Assembly: GCF_027887165.1 (NCBI RefSeq)
Contig: NC_077235.1
Span: forward strand, 51,547,895-51,611,894
DNA length: 64,000 nt
Source of the DNA: Monodelphis domestica
Taxonomy: Eukaryota > Chordata > Mammalia > Didelphimorphia > Didelphidae
Direction: 5' to 3'
A program made the position numbers and the translations under genes. The notes under the pieces are model-generated. The model ran no database searches. It was not told the origin of the DNA and saw only the letters and a list, made by a program, of their open reading frames with translations. Of this stretch, positions 1 to 58,547 are shown in pieces (the first letter of the stretch is position 1; every line of letters starts with the position of its first letter).

Positions 1-93
1 TCCAGCCTTGTGTTCTCCACAGTGATCTATCTTCACAGGAGACACTCAAGAACACTGGCTATCACCACGTCAAAGATCAGATGAACTTTACAT

Positions 94-293
94 TTTTTTA
101 ACCCCTTACCTTCTGTCTTGGAGTCAATACTGTTTATTGGTTCCAAGGCAGAAGAGTGGTAAGTGCTAGGCAATGGGGGTCAAGTGACTTGCCCAGGGTC
201 ACACAGCTAGGAAGTGTCTGAGGCCAGATTGGAACCCAGGACCTCCTGTTTCTGGGCCTGGCTCTCAATCCACTGAGCCACCTAGCTGCCTCC
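94..293 (-). mobile_element. WSINE1-like SINE with TSD
   Basis: Full-length tRNA-derived CORE-SINE in reverse orientation. The CCTTACCTTCTGTCTTGGAG 3' end comes first and the CACCTAGCTGCC head last. ACTTTACATTT flanks it on both sides (about 83-93 and 298-308), which marks L1-type insertion into an older L2 tail. Confidence 0.85.
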
Positions 294-400
294 TGGACTT
301 TACATTTATTAAGGGCCTACTATGTGCCCTCGAGAAGCTCACAGACTAATGGGGAGTAGGGACAGTGAGCTGGCCTTCTGCCCCTTGATGCCAGAGCACT
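294..400 (-). mobile_element. L2 3'-end fragment
   Basis: It reads TTTATTAAGGGCCTACTATG followed by GAAGCTCACAGACTAATGGG. This is the reverse complement of the L2 3' UTR, whose forward form carries 'gtaagctccttgagggcaggg' and 'cctggcacatagtaggc'. It was the target of the preceding SINE. Confidence 0.55.
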
Positions 401-18085: not shown

Positions 18086-18186
18086 TGAGAGGCTCTTAAA
18101 CTCAGGGTTTTTATTTCCTGAGTGTGTAGAAAATATGATGAATGCTGGAAGCTGCATTTCCCCCTCTCTTTAAAAAGTTCCTTTGC

Positions 18187-18392
18187 AGGGGTCAACTAGG
18201 TGGCTCAGTGAATTGAGAGCCAGGCCTAGAGATGGGAGGTCCTGGCTTGAAATCTGGCCTCAGACACTTCCTAGTTGTGTGACTCTGGGCCAGTCCCTTA
18301 ACCCCCACTGCCCAGCCCTTACCACTCTTCTCCCTAGGAACCAATACACAGTATTGACTCCAAGATGGAAGGTGAGGGTTAAAAAAAAAAGA
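18187..18392 (+). mobile_element. WSINE1-like SINE
   Basis: CAGGGGTCAACTAGGTGGCT head, CCAATACACAGTATTGACTC, and an A-rich tail. Confidence 0.9.
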
Positions 18393-19454: not shown

Positions 19455-20245
19455 AGCCTAATATGTGCCGCTTTGCTAGCCACCAGGGATACAAAGACAA
19501 GATCAACTCTGCTTCTCATCTTTTTTTTTTTTTAAACCCTTACCTTCCGTCTTGGAGTCAATACTGTGTATTGGCTCCAAGGCAGAAGAGTGGTAAGGGC
19601 TAGGCAATGGGGGTCAAGTGACTTGCCCAGGGTCACACAGCTGGGAAGTGTCTGAGGTTAGATTTGAACCTAGGACCTCCCGTCTCTAGGCCTAACTCTC
19701 AATCCACTGAGCTACCCAGCTGCCCCCTCTGCTTCTCATCTTAAAGGACATCTTTTCAATGAAGTTTACACTACATATTGAGACAAACACAAAACTTTTT
19801 GAGATGGAGGGAGTGCTAACACATGGAGAATTAGCCAAGATTTGGGGTAGAAAGTGGCACCTGTCTGAAGGAACCTGAGATTTCCAGTACAGAATTGGCT
19901 GGAGCCACTGCACAAAGGTGGGGGTTGATGGAGAAGCTAGTTGGCCAGTTTTTGTGGAATTTGATGAACGCGAGTACCAGTCTGTTGATGATGCGCCTTG
20001 ACAAGTAGCCTGGCACCAGATTGTTCAGCCCCTTAAATACTGGGATAAAGAGTCAGGATTTTCTTTTGGAGGCACTAGAGAGCCATGGAAGATTTTTCAT
20101 TAGAGTCCCACCACTGCCTTTCTGAAACCGCTAGAGAATTGAGGTGGGGAAGCAGGAAGACCAATTAGGCATCAGCAACAGTCCAGGTGAGAGTGGATGA
20201 GGGCTTAAAGTGGGGCAGTGGTTAGAAAGGGTATCTGTGTTCTAA
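19455..20245 (-). mobile_element. L2, long reversed copy
   Basis: Reversed L2 from its 3' end (AATATGTGCCG, GGATACAAAGACAAGATC) into the 3' part of the element (CATTAGAGTCCCACCACTGC; CAGTCCAGGTGAGAGTGGAT). A SINE splits it cleanly at 19,521-19,726. Confidence 0.7.
19523..19726 (-). mobile_element. WSINE1-like SINE with 16-bp TSD
   Basis: Full-length reverse SINE. The perfect TSD CTCTGCTTCTCATCTT lies at 19,507-19,522 and 19,727-19,742. It is well preserved, so it is probably one of the younger insertions here. Confidence 0.95.
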
Positions 20246-23545: not shown

Positions 23546-23560
23546 TTTTTGGACTTTTTT

Positions 23561-23761
23561 TTTTTTAAACCCTCACCTTCTGTCTTGGAGTCATTACTGT
23601 GTATTGGCTCCAAGGCAGAAGAGTGGTAAGGGCTAGGCAATGGGGGTCAAGGGACTTGCCCAGGGTCACACAGTTAGGAAGTGTCTGAGGTCAGATTGGA
23701 ACCTAGGACCTCCCATCTCTAGGCCTGGCTCTCAATTCACTGAGCTACCCAGCTGCCCCCG
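23561..23761 (-). mobile_element. WSINE1-like SINE with 15-bp TSD
   Basis: Full-length reverse SINE. TTTTTGGACTTTTTT lies at 23,546-23,560 and again at 23,762-23,776. Confidence 0.95.
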
Positions 23762-45009: not shown

Positions 45010-45583
45010 TGTAATTAGAATCTGTTACTCTAAAAACTACAATTACCAGCACCCATTCTCTTCATGTTCTGTTCTGATGTGGGGAGGATATAAATTTGGT
45101 GTAGAGCCCTGCCTCTCACTCTTATCTTCCAGTTGGGGCTTTGATGGAGTGGGCTTTCTTAAAATTCATTTATTTATCTTTGCATTTTTTTATTCATTTA
45201 TTTATTTGTTTGTTTATTTAAGGCCCTTATTTTCTGTCTTGGAATCAATACTGTGTATTGGTTCCAAGGCAGAAGAGTGGTAAGGGCTAGGCAATGGGGG
45301 TTAAGTGACTTACCCAGGGTCACACAGCTGGGACCTGTCTGAGGCCAGATTTGAACCTAGGACCTCCCATCTCTAGGCCTGGGTCTCAATCCACTGAATT
45401 ACCCAGCTGCCCCCTGGAGTGGGCTTTTTAAACAGGCAAGGAAAACTTAGTCACGTGATCTTAATTTTGTTAAATAATTGGATTTTTTAACTTCTATTTC
45501 CTTTTTATTCCTTCTACTTCAAGTGATTATTAATAAATTTTATAAAATTAATACTTGGAGCTGTTGGATATTTAAATCCTACA
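45010..45583 (+). mobile_element. Solo LTR fossil
   Basis: It starts TGTAATTAG and ends TCCTACA, with TATTTG / TATCTG on the two sides as a probable 6-bp TSD. It holds a TATA-like GGATATAAATTTGG and an AATAAA near its end. A SINE lies inside. Without the SINE it is ~310 bp. Family not named. Confidence 0.65.
45164..45414 (-). mobile_element. WSINE1-like SINE with TSD, ATTT-rich tail
   Basis: Reverse SINE whose tail region is an ATTT/GTTT repeat (45,166-45,222). GGAGTGGGCTTTCTT / GGAGTGGGCTTTTT flank it. It is inserted in the LTR. Confidence 0.9.
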
Positions 45584-49259: not shown

Positions 49260-52200
49260 TGCCATTAATGGAGAAGTCCATTACGTTTGATTGTACCACA
49301 GTGTCCCAGTCTCTGTGTACAATGTTCTCCTCCTTTCACTCTGCATCACTTCCTGGAGGTTGTTCCAGTCTCCATGGAATTCCTCCACTTTATTATTCCT
49401 TTTAGCACAATAGTATTTCATCACCAACATATACCACAATTTGTTCAGCCATTTCCTAATTAAAGGGCTTCCCCTTATTTTCCAATTTTTGGCCACCACA
49501 AAGAGCGCAGGTATGAATATTCTTGTACAATTCTTTTTTCCTTATCTCTTTGGGGTACAAACCCAGCAGTGCTATGGCTGGATCAAAGGGCAGACAGTCT
49601 TTTAGCGCCCTTTGGGCATAGTTCCAAATTGCCCTCCAGAATGATTGGATCAATTCACAACTCCACCAGCAATAAATTAATTGCCCGACTTTGCCACATC
49701 CCCTCTAGCATTCATTACTTTCTGTAGCTGTCATGTTAGCCAATCTGCTAGGTGTGAGATGATACCTCAGAGTTGGTTTGATTTGCATCTCTCTGATTAT
49801 GAGAGATTTAGAACACTTTTTCATGTGCTTATTAATAGTTTTGATTTCTTTGGCTGAAAACTGCCTATTCATGTCCCTTGGCTCATTTTTCAATTGGAGA
49901 ATGGCTTGATTTTTTGTACAATTGGTTTAACTCTTTATAAATTTGAGTAATTAGACCTTTGCCAGAGGTTTTTGTTATATTGTTTTCCAATTTGTTGCTT
50001 CCCTTCTAATTTTAGTTACATTGGTTTTGTTTGTACAAAAACATTTTAATTTGATGTAGTCAAAATTATTTATTTTACATTTTGTGACTCTAAGTCTTGT
50101 TTGGTTTTAAAATCTTTCCCTTCCCAAAGGTCTGACATGTATACTATTCTGTGTTCACCTAATTTACTTATAGTTTCCTTCTTTATATTCAAGTCATTCA
50201 CCCATTATGAGTTTATCTTGCTGTAGGGTGTGAGGTGTTGATTCAAACCTAATCTCTCCCACACTGTCTTCCAATTTTCCCAGCAGTTTTTATCATATAG
50301 TGGATTTTTGTCCCAAAACCTGGGGTCTTTGGGTCTGTCATAAACTGTCTTGCTGAGGTCATTTATGCCAAGTCTATTCCACTGATGCTCCTTTCTGTCT
50401 CTTAGCCAGTACCAAATTGTTTTGATGACCACTGCTTTGTAATATAGTTTGAGATCTGGGACTGCAAGGCCACCTTCCTTTGCATTTTTTTTCATTATTT
50501 CCCTGGATATCCTTGATCCTTTGTTCTTCCAAATGAACTTTGTTATGTTTTTCTCTAATTCAGTAAAAAAAGTTTTTTGGAAGTTCAATGGGTATGGCAT
50601 TAAATAGATAGATAAGTTTGGGCAGGATGGTCATTTTTATTATGTTAGCTCATCCCACCCATGAGCAATCAATGTTTTTCCAATTGTTTAGATCTAGTTT
50701 TAATTGTGTGGAGAGTGTTTTGTAGTTGTGTTCATATAGTTTCTGTGTTTGTCTCGGCAGATAGATTCCTAAGTATTTTATATTGTCTCGGGTGACTTTA
50801 AATGGAATTTCTCTTTCTAATTCTTGCTGCTGAACTGGATTGGAGATATATAGAAATGCTGATGACTTATGTGGGTTTATTTTGTATCCTGAAACTTTGC
50901 TAAAGTTGTTGATTATTTCGACTAGCTTTTTGGTTGATTCTCTAGGATTCTTTAAGTATACCATCATATTGTCCGCAAAGAGTGACAGCTTGGTCTCCTC
51001 ATTGCCAATTTTAATACCTTCAATTTCTTTTTCTTCTCTAATTGTTACTGCTAGTGTTTCTAGTATAATATTAAATAATAAAGGTGATAATGGGCATCCT
51101 TGTTTCACTCCTGATCTTATTGGGAAGGCTTCTAACTCATCCCCATTGTAGATGATGTTTGCTGATGGTTTAAGATATATACTGTTTATTATATTATTAT
51201 TTGTTATAGAAGAAAAGGCCCTTCTATTCCTATACTATCTAGTGTTTTCAAAAGGAATGGGTGTTGTATTTTATCAAAGGCTTTTTCTGCATCTATTGAG
51301 ATAATCATGTGATTTTTGTTGGTTTGCTTGTTAATGTGGTCAATTATGTGAATGGTTTTCCTAATATTGAACCATCCTTGCATTCCTGGTGTGAATCCTG
51401 CCTGGTCATAGTGGATAACCCTTGTGATGACTTGCTGGAGTCTTTTTGCTAGTATCCTATTTAAGATTTTTGCATCTATATTCATTAGGGAGATTGGCCT
51501 ATAGTTTTCTTTCTCTGTTTTTAACCTGCCTGGCTCTGGGATCAGTACCATATTGTGTCGTAAAAAGAATTTGGTAGAACCCCTTCTTGGCTTATTCTGT
51601 CAAATGGTTTGTATAATATTGGGATTAGTTGTTCTTTGAATGTTTGATAGAATTCATTTGTGAATCCATCTGGAGCTGGGGATTTTTTCGGGGAGTTCTT
51701 TGATGACTTGTTCAATTTCTTTTTCTGATATGGGGTTGTTTAGGTAATTTATTTCTTTTTCTTTTAGTCTAGGCAATTTATATTTTTGTAAGAATTCATC
51801 CATATAACCTAGATTGCCATATTTGTTGCTATAAAGTTGGGCATAGTAGTTTTTAATGATTGCCTTAATTTCCTCTTCATTAGAGGTAACTTCTCCCTTT
51901 TCATCTTGGATACTGTCAATTTGTTTTTTTTCTTTACTTTTTAAAAATAGACTGACTAGTACTTTATTTTATTTGTTTTTTCAAAGTACCAACTTTTAGT
52001 TTTATTTATTAAATCAATAGTTCTTTGACTTTCAATTTTATTGATTTCTCCTTTGATTTTTAGGATTTCTAATTTAGTCTTCATCTGAGGATTTTTAATT
52101 TGTTCACTTTCTAGCCCAATTCATTGACTTCTGCCCTTCTTAATTTGTTTATACATGAACTCAAGGATATAAATTTCCCCCTGAGTACTGTTTTGGCTGC

Positions 52201-53000
52201 ATCCCATAGGTTTAGAAAGGATGTCTCATCATTGTAATTTTCTTTAATGAAGTTATTAATTGTTTTTATGAATTGTTCTTTAGCCAGTTTTGGAGAATCA
52301 TATTGTTTAATTTCCAATTAATTTTTGATTTATCTCTCCATGTACTCTTACTAATTATTATTTTCATTGCATTGTGGTCTGAGAAGGTTGTATTTATTAT
52401 TTCTGCCCTTTTGTACTTGTTTGCAATATTTGTGTGCCCTAATACATGGACAATTTTTGTGAATGTACCATGTGCTGCTGAAAAGAAGGTGTATTCCTTT
52501 TTGTCCCTGTTTATTTTTCTCCACATGTCTACTAATTTTTCTAAGATTTCATTCACTTCTTTCACCTATTTCCTATATGTTTTTTTGGTTTGATTTATCT
52601 AGTTTGGATAGAGGAAGGTTCAGGTCTCTCACTAGTATAGTTTTTCTATCTATTTTATCCTTGAGCTGCACTAGTTTCTCCTTTAGACATTTGGATGCTA
52701 TGCCATTTGGTGCATACATATTGAGTACAGATATTTCCTCATTGTCTATACTACCTTTTATCAGGATGTAATTACATTCCCTATCTCTTTTAACTAGATC
52801 TATTTTTACTTTGGCTTTGTCAGATATCATGATTGCAACTCCTGCCTTCTTTTTTATCAGTTGATGCCCAATAGATTTGGCTCCACCCTCTTACTTTCAC
52901 CCTATGCGTATCTACCTTCCTCATGTGTGTTTCTTGTAGACAGCATATGGAAGGTTTTGGATTCTAATCCACTCTATTCGCTTGCTTTTTATGGGTGAGT
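49260..53000 (-). pseudogene. L1 ORF2 remnant (endonuclease-RT)
   Basis: Endonuclease pieces: SVLNMYAPNG and TILVRDLNLPLSKLDKS at 52,573-52,830, then HVLGHTNIANKYKRAEI. RT pieces: [22 protein letters not shown]-like [19 protein letters not shown] and [19 protein letters not shown] at 51,204-51,551, then KQGCPLSPLLFNIILETLA. The usual FADD active site reads FADN (near 50,970), so a catalytic aspartate is lost. The C-terminal part ends with KNWKIRGSPLIRKWLNKLWY near 49,450. At least six frame breaks separate these blocks. Confidence 0.9.
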
Positions 53001-53542
53001 TCATTCCATTCACATTCAGAGTTATGATTACTAGCTGTGTATTTCCCAGCATTTAGATTTCTACTCCTGGTCCTGCCTTTTCTTCTTTCACTATTTTCTT
53101 CTACACCAGTGTTTGTTTATAATCAATCCCCCTAGTTCCCACCCTTATTTTACTTCCCTTTCTACCCCCCTTCTTATTCCCCCCCTTATTTTCCCCTGTA
53201 GTCTTTTTAACCCCCCCCCCTTTCCCTTATATTGCTTCCTTCCCCACCAGTTTGTTTTTTACCCTTCTACTCCCCTATAGGGCGCAAATCTATTCTCTCC
53301 CCCAATGGATTGGATTGTTCTTCCCTCTTTGGGTCAGTTTCAAATCACGTAAGAGTTGAGTATTTCTTATCTCCAACCTCTTTACCTTTCCAGTGTATCG
53401 ATGTTCTCCCCCTTCCCGCCATGAGCTTCTTTGTGACATATAAATTTACCCCTATTTGTTTCTTTTCCCATTTCTTTTAGTATTAACCTCTTTTTTTTAG
53501 CTCTGGTTGTGTGTATATATATATATATATACACACACATGT

Positions 53543-56179
53543 GTTCAGAATGGCGAACAAATATAAAACAACGTGGATGCACCCAAGATCAAAACAGTGG
53601 CATCTCATTGACTACATCATTGTACGCCGGCAAGACATCCAGGATGTACAGATCACCAGAGCCATGAGAGGAGCTGAATGCTGGACAGACCACCTATTGG
53701 TTAGAGCGACTCTTCAAATGCTCATTGCGCCTTGCCATCCAAAATGTGCCCAGACAGTTTGCGCATTTTACAACGTGAGTCTTCTTAGAGATCCATCTTA
53801 TTTGCAAACATTCCAGTCCTGCCTGGACAACAAGCTGTCTGCCAAGGGACCACTCACTGGAAGCTCAACCGAGAAATGGAACCAGTTCAGAGACGCAGTG
53901 AAGGAAACATCAAAGGCAGTCCTAGGCCCCAAACAACGCAACCACCAGGACTCGTTCGATGAGAACAACACTGCTATTGAAGACCTATTGAGCAAAAAGA
54001 ACAAAGCCTTTATGGAGTGGCAAAATAACCCAAACTCTGCTCCTAAAAAGGACAGTTTCAAGTCTCTCCAAGCCACGGATCAGTGTGAGATCAGGAAGAT
54101 GCAAGACCGATGGTAGGGGAAAAAAAGGCAGAAGAAATCCAGTGGTTTGCTGATATGAAAAACTACAAACAATTTTTCAGTGCCCTCAAGACTGTCTATG
54201 GGCCATTAAAACCCACCACCACTCCCTTGCTATCCTCTGATGGTGACATTCTCATAAAAGATAAAAAAGGCATCAACAACAGGTGGAAAGAACACTTCAG
54301 TCAGCTTCTCAAACGACCCTCTTTAGTCGACCAAAGCACCCTTGACCAGATCCCCCAAAACCGCTCCATTGAACAACTTGACGTCCCTCCTTCAATAGAG
54401 GAAGTCCAAAAAGCCATTAAACAAATGAGTGCAGGCAAGGCACCCAGTAAAGACAGGATCCCAACCGAGGTGTGTGAGGCCTTAAATGGAAAGGCGCTTC
54501 AGGCATTCCACATAGTGCTGACCAGCATATGGGAAGAGGAAGACATGCCCCCAGAACTCAGAGATGCCTCCATCGTAGCCCTATACAAGAACAAAGGCGC
54601 ACGAGCAGCCTGTGACAACTACAGAGGCATCTCACTACTCTCCACTGCTGGAAAGATCCTCGCCCGTATTATACTCAACAGACTCCTGTCATCTGTTTCA
54701 GAGCAGAACCTGCCTGAATCACAATGTGGCTTCCAACCAGATCGCAGCACCATTGACATGGTCTTCACAGTGAGGCAAATGCAGGAAAAATGCCTTGAGA
54801 AGAACCTGAGTCTCTACATTGTCTTCATAGACCTGACAAAGGCGTTCGACACAGTGAATAGGGACGCATTGTGGGTGATCCTTAGCAAGCTCGGTAGCCC
54901 AGCAAAATTCGTCAAACTGATCCAGCTCTTTCATGTCGACATGACAGGGAAAGTCGTATCTGGTGGAGAGACTTCCAATCGCTTCAACATCTTCAATGGC
55001 ATGAAATAAGGCTGTGTCCTCACTCCGGTACTATTCAACCTATCCTTCACCCAAGTATTACGACATGCTGTGATGGATCTAGACCTGGGCATCTACATCA
55101 AATACCGACTGGATGGCTCACTATTCGACCTTCGCCGCCTGACTGCAAAAACAAAGACAACAGAGAGACTCATCCTGGAAGCTCTCTTTGCAGATGACTG
55201 TGCTCTCATGGCCCACCAAGAAAATCATCTTCAAACCATTGTGGACAGGTTCTCCACTGCAACAAAACTGCTTGGCCTGACTATCAGCCTCAGCAAAACA
55301 GAGGTGCTGTTCCAATCTGCACCAGGGAGGCCAACGAACCAGCCGTGCATAACTATCGATGGCAAGCAGCTTTCTAACGTCAACACTTTCAAGTACCTGG
55401 GCAGCACCATCGCCAACGACGGGTCCCTAGACCACGAGATTAATGCCAGGATCCAAAAGGCCAGCCAGGCACTCGGGCAGCTGCGCTGCAAAGTCCTCCA
55501 GCACAGAGGTGTAAGCACTGCGACGAAGCTCAAAGTGTATAACGCAGTGGTCCTCAGCTTGCTCCTGTATGGTTGCGAGACATGGACACTGTACCAGAAG
55601 CACATGAAACGAAGCAATTCCACCAACGCTCCCTCCGGTCAATCATGAGGATCCAATGGCAGGACCGAATCACCAATCAGGAAGTCCTCAGCAGAGCCAA
55701 CTCCACCAGCATCGAAGTCATGGTCCTCAAAACCCAGCTACAATGGTCTGGACACGTCATCTGCATGGACCCACAGAGAATACCAAGACAGGTATTCTAT
55801 GGTGAACTGTCAGCTGGACTCAGGAAACAAGGTCGACCAAAGAAAAGATTCAAGGATCAGCTAAAGTCAAACTTAATGGGCTGGCATTACACCAAAGCAA
55901 CTAGAACTCACTGCCTCTGTCAGAAGCAGCTGGCGAACCCACATTCACCATGCCGCCACCACCTTTGAAGATGAGCGATGTCGATGTCTTGCCGCTGCGC
56001 ATGAAAGCCGACACCAGGCCACAATCGCACCTCCCATAACAACTGGCGTTCCATGCCCCATGTGCCACAAACTCTGTGCCTCAGCCTTTGGACTCCAAAG
56101 CCACATGAGGGTACACCGTAGATGAAACTGCACAAAGACAATAGTCATTCTCGATTACCGAGAGACTACCACTACTACT
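53543..56179 (+). mobile_element. 5'-truncated RTE-group non-LTR retrotransposon
   Basis: It is inserted in the L1 in opposite orientation, with the TSD ACACACATGT at 53,533-53,542 and 56,180-56,189. It is 2,637 bp long. It lacks the 5' UTR and most of the AP-endonuclease, keeps the endonuclease end, RT, C-terminal domain and a C2H2 finger, and closes with a 54-nt 3' UTR. The tail is ACT-type trinucleotides, not poly-A, as in RTE-like clades. The frame is broken four times. It differs clearly from BovB and L2, and resembles in my memory elements of tapeworms, flukes and molluscs. Confidence 0.85.
53546..56125 (+). pseudogene. RTE-group polyprotein remnant: APE end, RT, C2H2 finger
   Basis: Order of parts: the APE C-terminus WMHPRSKQWHLIDYIIVRRQ and CWTDHLLVRA (53,570-53,710); a linker (RKMQDRW) then KKAEEIQWFADMKNY and FFSALKTVYGP; RT with GKAPSKDRIPTEV, CDNYRGISLLSTAGKILAR, LPESQCGFQPDRSTIDMVF, the catalytic FIDLTKAFDTVNRDALW and LFADDCALMA (55,187-55,216, both Asp kept); then FKYLGSTIANDGSLDHEINA and IQWQDRITNQEVLSRAN. 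A terminal finger CPMC-x12-H-MRV-H ends in TGA (56,054-56,125). Breaks: a frameshift near 54,115; TAA at 55,007 in place of the conserved Gln of the NGxKQGC motif; frameshifts near 55,610 and 55,900-55,935. Confidence 0.85.
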
Positions 56180-56333
56180 ACACACATGTATATATATATA
56201 TATATACACCTATTTATGTCTTTTCCTTTCATTCTATACTTTGTCACTATTCTCTCTAAGTGTAATTCTTCTAGCTGCCCAGGTGATAGCAACAGTTTTT
56301 AAGAGTTACCAATGACCTCTTTTCTTATAGGGT

Positions 56334-57288
56334 GTTAAAAGGGAATCACTTTAAAAGACTGATATATATTAATTTAAGGTCGCCAAGGAATCAGCAATGT
56401 AATTCCTAAATGAAACTTAGGTCAGCCGTCAATCTTTTATGGAGTTTAATTACAATAGGAGGAAGTAATTAGAGATAGAGAGAGAGAAAAGGGAGAGAAG
56501 GAAATAGGGCTTAAATACCCCTTCTGTTTAGGCTGGGCCAAAAGGCCCAAGCCCTTAGATAGCTGGGGCAAAGAAAAGAGATCAGTCCCTATTACTCACG
56601 TGACCAAAATGGAGAAACAGTCTCAGAGGCCCCCACCTTCAGCTTCCTTCAGAGCAAGCTTCTCAGAGCCCCACACGAACCACACAGACCAACTCCTCAA
56701 CCACCCCTGGAGTCTTCAGACCCCCTATCTTTAAGGAAACCATCCAAGTTGCCTCCCCTCAGTCCTCACATCTACCAATCACTGTTCATCAATTTCCCTG
56801 TGCCAATGGAGGCTCTAGCTTAACCCAGGACCGCCCAGAGGTTTCTGGCTTTTGCACATGTCTGTTGAAGGTCATATTTTCAAATGATTAAATCTTTGCT
56901 CCTTTGCTACAGCCCTTTCTAAATCCTGTTAACCTGAGTAGGGTAGAGATTGGAATAATTAAATTTTGATCTAGGCTGCAGCCCTTACTCAATCCTGTTA
57001 GGACTGAATAGGTTGGAGATTGATTCAAGTATCTCCATTGTATCAATTCTAAAATCAATCAAGACTCAAAGAAATTCTGTTCTATGCTTAAGCATAGGTC
57101 AAAGTCCTTTCCATTGTTCAGCAAAAGGTTTCTGTCCTAAAGTAATCTTAAGAAGGGAAGAGAAGGAACCTCCCATGCCAATGGGGTTCCCATTCCAATA
57201 GACTATCAGTAAGAAATTTTCCAAGTATGAAATATCCCAATGGTGAAATTTCCAACATTTATAAGTCTAAGGAAATTTGAGGTTTACA
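56334..57288 (-). mobile_element. Solo LTR fossil (group B) in L1
   Basis: Plus-strand ends TGTTAAAAGG and GGTTTACA, with the 4-bp TSD AGGG (56,330-56,333; 57,289-57,292). Removing it rejoins the L1 as TTCTTATAGGGATACATATC. 955 bp, class I-like by TSD. It is related to the LTRs at 45.8 and 62.1 kb. Confidence 0.85.
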
Positions 57289-57384
57289 AGGGATACATAT
57301 CATTTTAACTTATTGAGTCACTTAAAAATTTTTTTTTGTTGTTTTGTTTTGTTTTCCCCCTCTTTTTTAATTACCTTTTGCTGA

Positions 57385-58547
57385 TTATCTTGAGTTCTGT
57401 GCTTGGATATCAAATTTTCTGTTCAGATCTGGTCTTTTCTTAAAGAAAGCTTGGAATTCTTCTATTGTTGAATGATCATACTTTCCCCTGTAAGAATATA
57501 GTCAGTTTCGCTGGGTAGTTGATTCTTGGTTGTATATCTAGTTCCCTTGCATTCCAAAATATCATATCCCATGCCTTTCGGTCCTTCAGTGTGGATGCAG
57601 TCAGATCAATGTGTTTCCATGGTATCTGAATGGCTTCTTCTTGGCAGCTTGTAATATCCTTTCTTTGGTCTGATAGTTTTTGAATTTGGCTAAAACATTC
57701 CTGGGTGTTATCAGTTGGGGATTAAATACAGGAGGTGATCTGTGGATTCTTTCAATCTCCACTTTCCCCTCTTGTTCTAGGATATAGGGACAATTTTCCT
57801 GAATAATTTCCTGTAGTATTATGTCCAGGCTTTTTCTTTTGTCATGGTCTTCTGGTAGACCAATGATTCTTAAATTGTCTCTTCTCGAACAATTTTCTAA
57901 ATCCTCTGTTTTGTGAATGAGATGCTTCATATTTTCCTCAATGTTTTCATTCTTTTCATTTTGTTTTATAGTTTCCTGCTGCCTTGTGAGGTCACTTAAT
58001 TCCAGTTGTTGTATTCTGGTTCTGGATTTCATCCCTGGATTTTTGGTCATCCTTTTTCTTCTGGTCTGATTTTCTTTGAAAGTCGTCATCTTTCATCCTC
58101 TTTACCTCATCTTTCATCCTCTTTACCTCATCTTTCATCCTCTTTACCTCATCTTTCATCCTCTTTACCTCATCTTTCATCCTCTTTACCTCATCTTTCA
58201 TCTCCTTTGCCTCATCTTTCATCTCCTTTGCCTTATTTTCCAGCTGGTTGATTTTGGCTTTTAGGACACTATTTTCTCGTTTTAGTTCAAGTGCCTCTGT
58301 TTCCAGATGACTTATCTTAATTTTTAAGTTCTTCTCCCAATTGTCTTCAGCCTCTCTTAATTGTGTTTTGAGTTCTTCCACAGCCTGTATCCAATTTGCT
58401 GGGATTTCTGATTTATTGTTTGCTGATCTCTCCCCCTCTGTTCTGTTTGCTGAGTAGAAGCTATCTATTGTAGTTTTTCTTCTTTCTGTTTGTTCAAATT
58501 CACCCCTTCTTTACTCCCTGTATTTGTCTGCTCTTGCTCCTCTCATT
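57385..58547 (-). pseudogene. L1 ORF1 remnant (RNA-binding chaperone)
   Basis: ORF1 probably starts at MRGARADKYRE (58,547). A stop follows directly, then TERRKTTIDSFYSANRTEG and a coiled coil. The coiled coil holds seven copies of a K(E/R)MKD(E/D)x heptad, listed separately. After a frameshift near 58,050 comes the RRM-like core LENCSRRDNLRIIGLPED with NVLAKFKNYQTKERILQAA. A further frameshift leads into the C-terminal domain (HIDLTASTLKDRKAWDMIFW; INYPAKLTIFLQGKV). In living L1s ORF1p forms trimers through the coiled coil and coats L1 RNA. This copy is dead. Confidence 0.85.
58086..58234 (-). repeat. 21-bp minisatellite in L1 ORF1
   Basis: Seven tandem 21-bp units. Five read AAGATGAGGTAAAGAGGATG or a near-identical form on the minus strand and two read with GCAAAGGAGATG. 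Each unit encodes one 7-residue heptad (KRMKDEV or KEMKDEA/V), so the array extends the coiled coil in register. Confidence 0.9.

What the first reader, a model, noticed from the sequence alone, without database searches (positions are those of the whole stretch)
53543..56179. RTE-group retrotransposon with C-terminal zinc finger in a marsupial L1
Seen: TSD, APE end, RT with FIDLTKAFDTV and FADD, and a C2H2 finger (C-x2-C-x12-H-x3-H) right before the stop. From memory of families: the closest likenesses (LIDYIIVRR, CDNYRGISLL, CGFQPDRSTIDMVF contexts) are in tapeworm, fluke, mollusc and arthropod 'endonuclease-reverse transcriptase' elements. Mammals normally carry L1, L2, CR1/L3 and BovB. Inference: this may be a lineage gained by horizontal transfer, perhaps through parasites, or a poorly described vertebrate RTE-X/Proto2-like family. 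Only four frame breaks in ~2.6 kb suggest a moderate age, younger than the L2s.
Basis: partly seen in the sequence, partly recalled or inferred. Interest (0 to 1): 0.8.

Follow-up and report, generated by a model that had tools for sequence, protein, structure and literature searches.

The report
Dead opossum RTE retrotransposon inside L1
A broken copy of a jumping gene of the RTE group sits inside an older jumping gene in opossum-like DNA; its nearest relatives are similar copies in the gray short-tailed opossum, so it looks like a true resident of opossum genomes, although a recent paper took the only mammal match of a seemingly related group for contamination.

Summary
One stop and three frameshifts make it dead. 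It lies in a minus-strand L1. Its nearest relatives are Monodelphis domestica proteins (14 of 120 listed hits, 87-91% identity); the tree places it among them (100/98). It is not BovB (28-31%). The finger is usual in this group (53 of 60 relatives that reach it). Non-BovB RTE families of marsupials are already in print. A 2026 survey of related Perere-3/Sr3 elements found one mammal, the opossum Gracilinanus agilis, and called that hit likely contamination; this nested copy and the Monodelphis copies argue otherwise, if they belong to the same group (inferred, not compared directly). Transfer into opossums is possible but not shown: opossum plus turtle as one clade is not rejected (AU p 0.118). 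New member of a known kind. The host genome could not be searched.

The parts
53533..53542 (.). left copy of the probable target site duplication ACACACATGT
53543..56179 (+). 5'-truncated RTE-clade LINE copy, 2637 bp
53543..54110 (+). end of the AP endonuclease and linker; about 188 N-terminal residues are missing compared with P0032
   Evidence: tblastn of P0032, 59% over 212 aa; roughly the first 18 columns of that alignment are flank
54113..55612 (+). linker and reverse transcriptase frame, broken by TAA at 55007-55009; motif A at 54824-54856, FADD at 55187-55198
55609..55896 (+). region after the RT, in another frame (frameshifts near 55608 and 55895)
55877..56125 (+). C-terminal frame ending in TGA
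56054..56116 (+). C2H2 zinc finger C-x2-C-x12-H-x3-H
56142..56168 (+). 3' UTR hairpin, 10 base pairs, -9.9 kcal/mol, z -3.13
56166..56179 (+). CTA-repeat tail
56180..56189 (.). right copy of the probable target site duplication
50809..57721 (-). older L1 that holds the insertion: ORF1 dsRBD at 57476-57721, ORF2 endonuclease-like reading at 52266-52890 (by eye), RT-like stretch at 51911-50809; outer limits not determined

Best explanation
It is a dead, 5'-truncated copy of an RTE-clade LINE that multiplied in opossum genomes. Shown: the anatomy, direct repeats at both ends, its place among Monodelphis copies, separation from BovB, and a finger shared with the wider group. Inferred: the protein of a source copy nicked an AT-rich site in an old L1, copied its own RNA from the 3' end (hairpin and short tandem tail being the part recognised), stopped early inside the endonuclease region, and the gap was sealed with a short duplication of the target. 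The C-terminal finger most likely grips RNA or target DNA, as C-terminal cysteine/histidine motifs of other LINE proteins are thought to do (recalled). The copy then decayed.
For: RVT_1 matches; 14 Monodelphis clusters among the 120 listed of 2025 hits, holding the first four places, and one among the 120 listed of 851 in a second search, its best hit; the window inside the Monodelphis set of the tree, 100/98; 31 of 469 residues different from the Monodelphis majority; direct repeats; hairpin; L1 on both sides; finger in 53 of 60 relatives that reach it. SR3 of schistosomes, an RTE element, has TSDs of 10-12 bp and prefers AT-rich sites (PMC1291365, passages).
Against: The host assembly could not be searched (13 unanswered genome-search runs), so copy number, full-length copies and the empty site were not seen. 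None of the 14 Monodelphis proteins is among the 60 that reach the finger, so within opossums the finger is seen only here. The direct repeat lies in a microsatellite. No DNA of a relative was available, so the hairpin rests on one sequence. The window's species is not known; Monodelphis copies are its nearest kin, not proof of the host.
Confidence: 0.88

Rival explanations
1. Origin by vertical descent: the lineage came down from an amniote or older ancestor and expanded again in opossums, while placentals lost it or kept only fossils.
For: Opossum plus turtle as one clade against fish and invertebrate rows is not rejected (AU p 0.118). [quoted passage not shown]
Against: Unnamed sequences stand closer to the opossum than the turtle does (98/99 and 80/98).
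Confidence: 0.55
2. Origin by horizontal transfer into a marsupial ancestor from another animal, perhaps through a parasite.
For: The group is patchy and its tree disagrees with the host tree in print (PMC13155389, sections 10 and 11). Here opossum, turtle and the fish Metynnis as one clade are rejected (AU p 1.15e-5), and Metynnis, Nucella and Stylophora proteins are 72.7-80.5% identical across phyla in the 12 pairs printed (the 4 pairs with P0041 fell below the 70 rows printed).
Against: That rejection rests on the fish, not on the opossum. With P0002 as query the turtle is at 69%, Metynnis, mantis shrimp, snail and coral at 60-67%, Oryzias, Branchiostoma, sea slugs and the bird Manacus at 50-53%; no close donor is named.
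Confidence: 0.35
3. Contamination: the element is foreign DNA in the assembly.
For: PMC13155389 calls the single mammal hit, Gracilinanus agilis, likely contamination.
Against: The copy is nested in an L1 with repeated target bases and is decayed; similar proteins are filed under Monodelphis.
Confidence: 0.02
4. It is a BovB-type element.
For: BovB is the best-known mammalian RTE (recalled).
Against: 28-31% identity to seven BovB rows, separate branch 100/100, finger in 0 of 120 BovB hits.
Confidence: 0.01

Closest known systems
Monodelphis domestica RT proteins in UniRef (e.g. P0002), probably a Repbase family such as RTE-1_MD or RTE1_Mars (guess)
   Same: 91.4% identity over 396 aa and same clade
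Perere-3/Sr3-like LINE-RTEs (Schistosoma, snails, turtles, fish, corals)
   Same: RTE group; SR3 has 10-12 bp TSDs and AT-rich targets (PMC1291365, passages); turtle, fish, snail and coral relatives in both; the sole mammal reported is also a didelphid opossum
   Different: No schistosome sequence was compared here; SR3 ends in TAAG repeats after a 177-bp 3' UTR, this copy in CTA repeats with 54 nt after the stop
RTE-2_OV of octopus
   Same: RTE with a C2H2 finger, called relatively rare in RTE elements (PMC9115989, passages)
   Different: Cephalopod element; its sequence was not compared
BovB
   Same: Endonuclease and RT in one protein (recalled; RT confirmed for P0267)
   Different: 28-31% identity, finger in 0 of 120 hits

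Membership tests
RTE clade | One protein with AP endonuclease then reverse transcriptase | tested here: met
   End of the endonuclease and RT in the window; of nine non-BovB relatives scanned, P0053, P0027 and P0032 show Exo_endo_phos and RVT_1, the others are too short at the N-terminus or show RVT_1 alone
RTE clade | Very short 3' UTR ending in short tandem repeats | tested here: met
   54 nt after TGA, ending in CTA repeats; feature as given in PMC1291365 section 8
RTE clade | Grouping with labelled RTE-1 or SR2 sequences | not tested
   No labelled RTE-1 or SR2 sequence was obtained; only BovB references were in the tree
BovB | Falls inside the BovB branch | tested here: not met
   Separate branch, 28-31% identity
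Monodelphis RTE family | Falls among Monodelphis copies | tested here: met
   Starred set of 7 rows, 100/98; nearest P0002, 94/84
RTE-1_MD / RTE1_Mars (Repbase names) | Nucleotide match to the Repbase consensus | not testable with these tools
   Consensus sequences not held; names seen in papers only
Perere-3/Sr3-like group | Nucleotide or protein match to Perere-3 or Sr3 | not tested
   No schistosome sequence is named in the listed hits
Perere-3/Sr3-like group | DUF6451 beside endonuclease and RT | tested here: inconclusive
   Weak match E 0.14 and 0.11 in the window, below cut-off; not listed at E up to 1 in nine non-BovB relatives
RTE-X / Proto2 | Grouping with labelled members | not tested
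   No labelled sequences were obtained

The most novel reading that the evidence does not exclude
Opossums gained a Perere-3/Sr3-like RTE lineage by horizontal transfer, which makes them a true mammalian host of the group that also moved between snails and schistosomes; the published contamination verdict for the only mammal is wrong.
Probability: 0.28. Interest if true: 0.72.

Novelty: new member of a known kind. Interest (0 to 1): 0.42.

Why it matters
A 2026 survey of metazoan genomes (3,446 searched; PMC13155389) found Perere-3/Sr3-like elements in one mammal only and set that hit aside as likely contamination. An integrated, decayed copy in an L1, with kin filed under Monodelphis, indicates that opossums carry this kind of element as residents. 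That makes inheritance against transfer into mammals testable with marsupial genomes.

Tried and rejected
Rejected: BovB; contamination; the finger as a special trait; a SINE in the window sharing the tail (apart from the element itself only matches of 11-21 bases). A BovB-type tail motif recalled from memory was not found in the window. Led nowhere: scans of viral contigs and genome contigs with P0002 and with alignment A1 found no relative; Rfam listed nothing at gathering thresholds; PMC1899126 (Gentles et al. 2007) is not held. Rough age (conversion and rates recalled, no tool): 6.6% amino-acid difference from the majority suggests about 3% neutral DNA divergence, of the order of 10-20 million years; the majority is not the true source copy, so this is weak.

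Full report
What is there. The element occupies 53543-56179 on the plus strand. Reading frames give the end of an AP endonuclease (from VFRMANKYKTTWMHPRSKQWHLIDYIIVRR), a linker, an RT with intact motif A and FADD, a region after the RT, and a C-terminal C2H2 finger just before TGA. Pfam finds RVT_1 on both sides of the internal stop, E 5.5e-17 and 3.9e-8, and nothing in the endonuclease remnant. Compared with P0032, whose endonuclease domain Pfam recognises, about 188 N-terminal residues are missing. There are four breaks: frameshift near 54110, TAA at 55007, frameshifts near 55608 and 55895.

Ends and setting. ACACACATGT stands at both ends. In 2000 random pairs of places at the same distance in the window none had an abutting repeat as long; the pairs were not matched for the microsatellite in which this repeat lies, so its length is uncertain. 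The 54 nt after TGA hold a 10-bp hairpin (z -3.13, 2 of 200 shuffles as good) and end in CTA repeats. Around it lies a minus-strand L1: ORF1 dsRBD at 57476-57721 (E 4.1e-7), an endonuclease-like ORF2 reading at 52266-52890 (Pfam E 0.037 for one of its two pieces; L1 by eye) and an RT-like stretch at 51911-50809. So the RTE came later than the L1, by insertion.

Relatives. A search with the RT region gave 2025 proteins at E 1e-3 or better among 7983 scored candidates, 120 listed. Of these 14 are named Monodelphis domestica, at 87-91% in the listing; six of them measured again gave 86.8-91.4%. A second search with a shorter piece gave 851 proteins, 120 listed, one more Monodelphis cluster as its best hit. 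The 15 clusters stand for 51 member sequences by the listings; members are not named one by one. Next come P0122 (unnamed, 85%) and P0051 (unnamed, 78%), then unnamed ones at 70-74%, box turtle 66-70%, Metynnis, snails, mantis shrimp and coral at 57-65%, and Oryzias and Branchiostoma at 49-52%. Bovine, goat and lizard BovB rows are at 28-31%.

Tree. Of 360 proteins fetched, 57 were chosen for a tree with the window (58 rows; 7 rows fill under half of the columns, two have long branches). The window falls among the Monodelphis rows (7 rows, 100/98), joined by P0122 (97/87) and P0051 (100/99). BovB stands apart (100/100). The order of the deeper forks, turtle included, is unresolved. Two clade tests, chosen after the tree was seen: opossum, turtle and Metynnis (12 rows) against nine invertebrate rows is rejected (p 1.15e-5); opossum with turtle (9 rows) against Metynnis and the invertebrates (12 rows) is not (p 0.118). 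Unnamed rows, P0122, P0051, Oryzias, Manacus, Branchiostoma, the sea slugs and BovB were not constrained. The first result comes from the fish, which groups with snail and coral at 72.7-80.5% identity among the 12 printed pairs of the three animals; the 4 pairs with P0041 fell below the 70 rows printed.

The finger. Of the 120 hits, 58 carry C-x2-C-x12-H-x3,4-H within 40 residues of the end; 0 of 120 BovB hits and 0 of the 120 shorter hits do, the latter being RT fragments of 134-342 aa. Of the 60 hits that run at least 75 residues past a W-G-H motif, 53 carry it; the other 7 are variants (C-x4-C in one, a last cysteine in three) or end in unrelated letters (three). None of the 14 Monodelphis proteins is among the 60. 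The finger is therefore an old part of this branch, not a marsupial gain. The octopus paper calls a C2H2 finger relatively rare in RTE elements (PMC9115989, passages); in this branch it is the rule.

Age. The window copy differs from the Monodelphis majority at 31 of 469 residues (6.6%); of 15 database clusters 13 differ at 3.5-7.2% and two at 14.0 and 16.2%; P0122 and P0051 differ at 15.7 and 15.8%. This fits a burst of moderate age in the opossum lineage.

What is known. PMC3747384 (passages) lists RTE-1_MD, RTE-2 (MD, ME) and RTE-3_MD as LINE partners of marsupial SINEs. PMC9004415 (passages) has RTE1_Mars under RTE, apart from BovB, and finds RTE fossils in human. PMC2910653 and PMC3403934 (passages) report RTE-driven SINEs in marsupials. 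So RTE activity in marsupials is known; which Repbase name applies could not be tested. PMC13155389 (sections 10 and 11 read; passages) surveys Perere-3/Sr3-like LINE-RTEs: snails, schistosomes, turtles, amphibians, fish, corals, one bird and one mammal, Gracilinanus agilis (28 hits over 1 kb, longest 1,619 bp, 60.4%), and says that the bird and mammal hits likely represent contamination. Gracilinanus and Monodelphis are both Didelphinae. My reading: the Gracilinanus hits are the same resident opossum family. This is inferred from the shared set of host groups and the shared opossum subfamily; no schistosome sequence was compared, and DUF6451, which that paper shows as a third domain, is matched here only weakly (E 0.14 and 0.11) and is not listed in nine non-BovB relatives. 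That nobody else has linked Monodelphis to this group was looked for only in the searches and 60 of an open-licence library.

Verdict. Observation confirmed; ordinary in mechanism; a member of a known kind that offers a correction to a recent survey. Descent or transfer stays open.

Noticed in passing
proteins P0022, P0031, P0041 (Metynnis), P0028, P0034 (Nucella), P0036, P0056 (Stylophora); Fish, snail and coral RTE proteins group together and are 72.7-80.5% identical in the 12 of 16 cross-phylum pairs printed (350-633 aa), more alike than opossum and turtle ones (69%): a candidate transfer between phyla, or contamination.
   Followed up: partly
plasmid record NZ_CP104070.1, 20232-21725: A 39.8-kb record filed as an Alicyclobacillus plasmid encodes, with no annotated feature under the match, a LINE-like RT 28% identical to the opossum element and 26% to BovB; perhaps eukaryotic DNA in the record.
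   Followed up: partly
proteins P0244, P0245, P0252, P0355: Proteins 93-98% identical to the BovB probe are filed under Staphylococcus aureus, Mycoplasmopsis arginini, Babesia ovata and Mycolicibacterium malmesburyense: bovine DNA in public records, most likely.
   Followed up: no
window 93-294, 18186-18387, 19527-19728, 23560-23760, 45209-45415 and others: A repeat of about 200 bp with many copies, roughly 70-94% alike, on both strands; probably a SINE, not identified by name.
   Followed up: no
window 56343-57000 and 53100-53300: The stretch between the RTE and L1 ORF1 was not examined and may hold another insertion; on the other side is a pyrimidine-rich tract.
   Followed up: no
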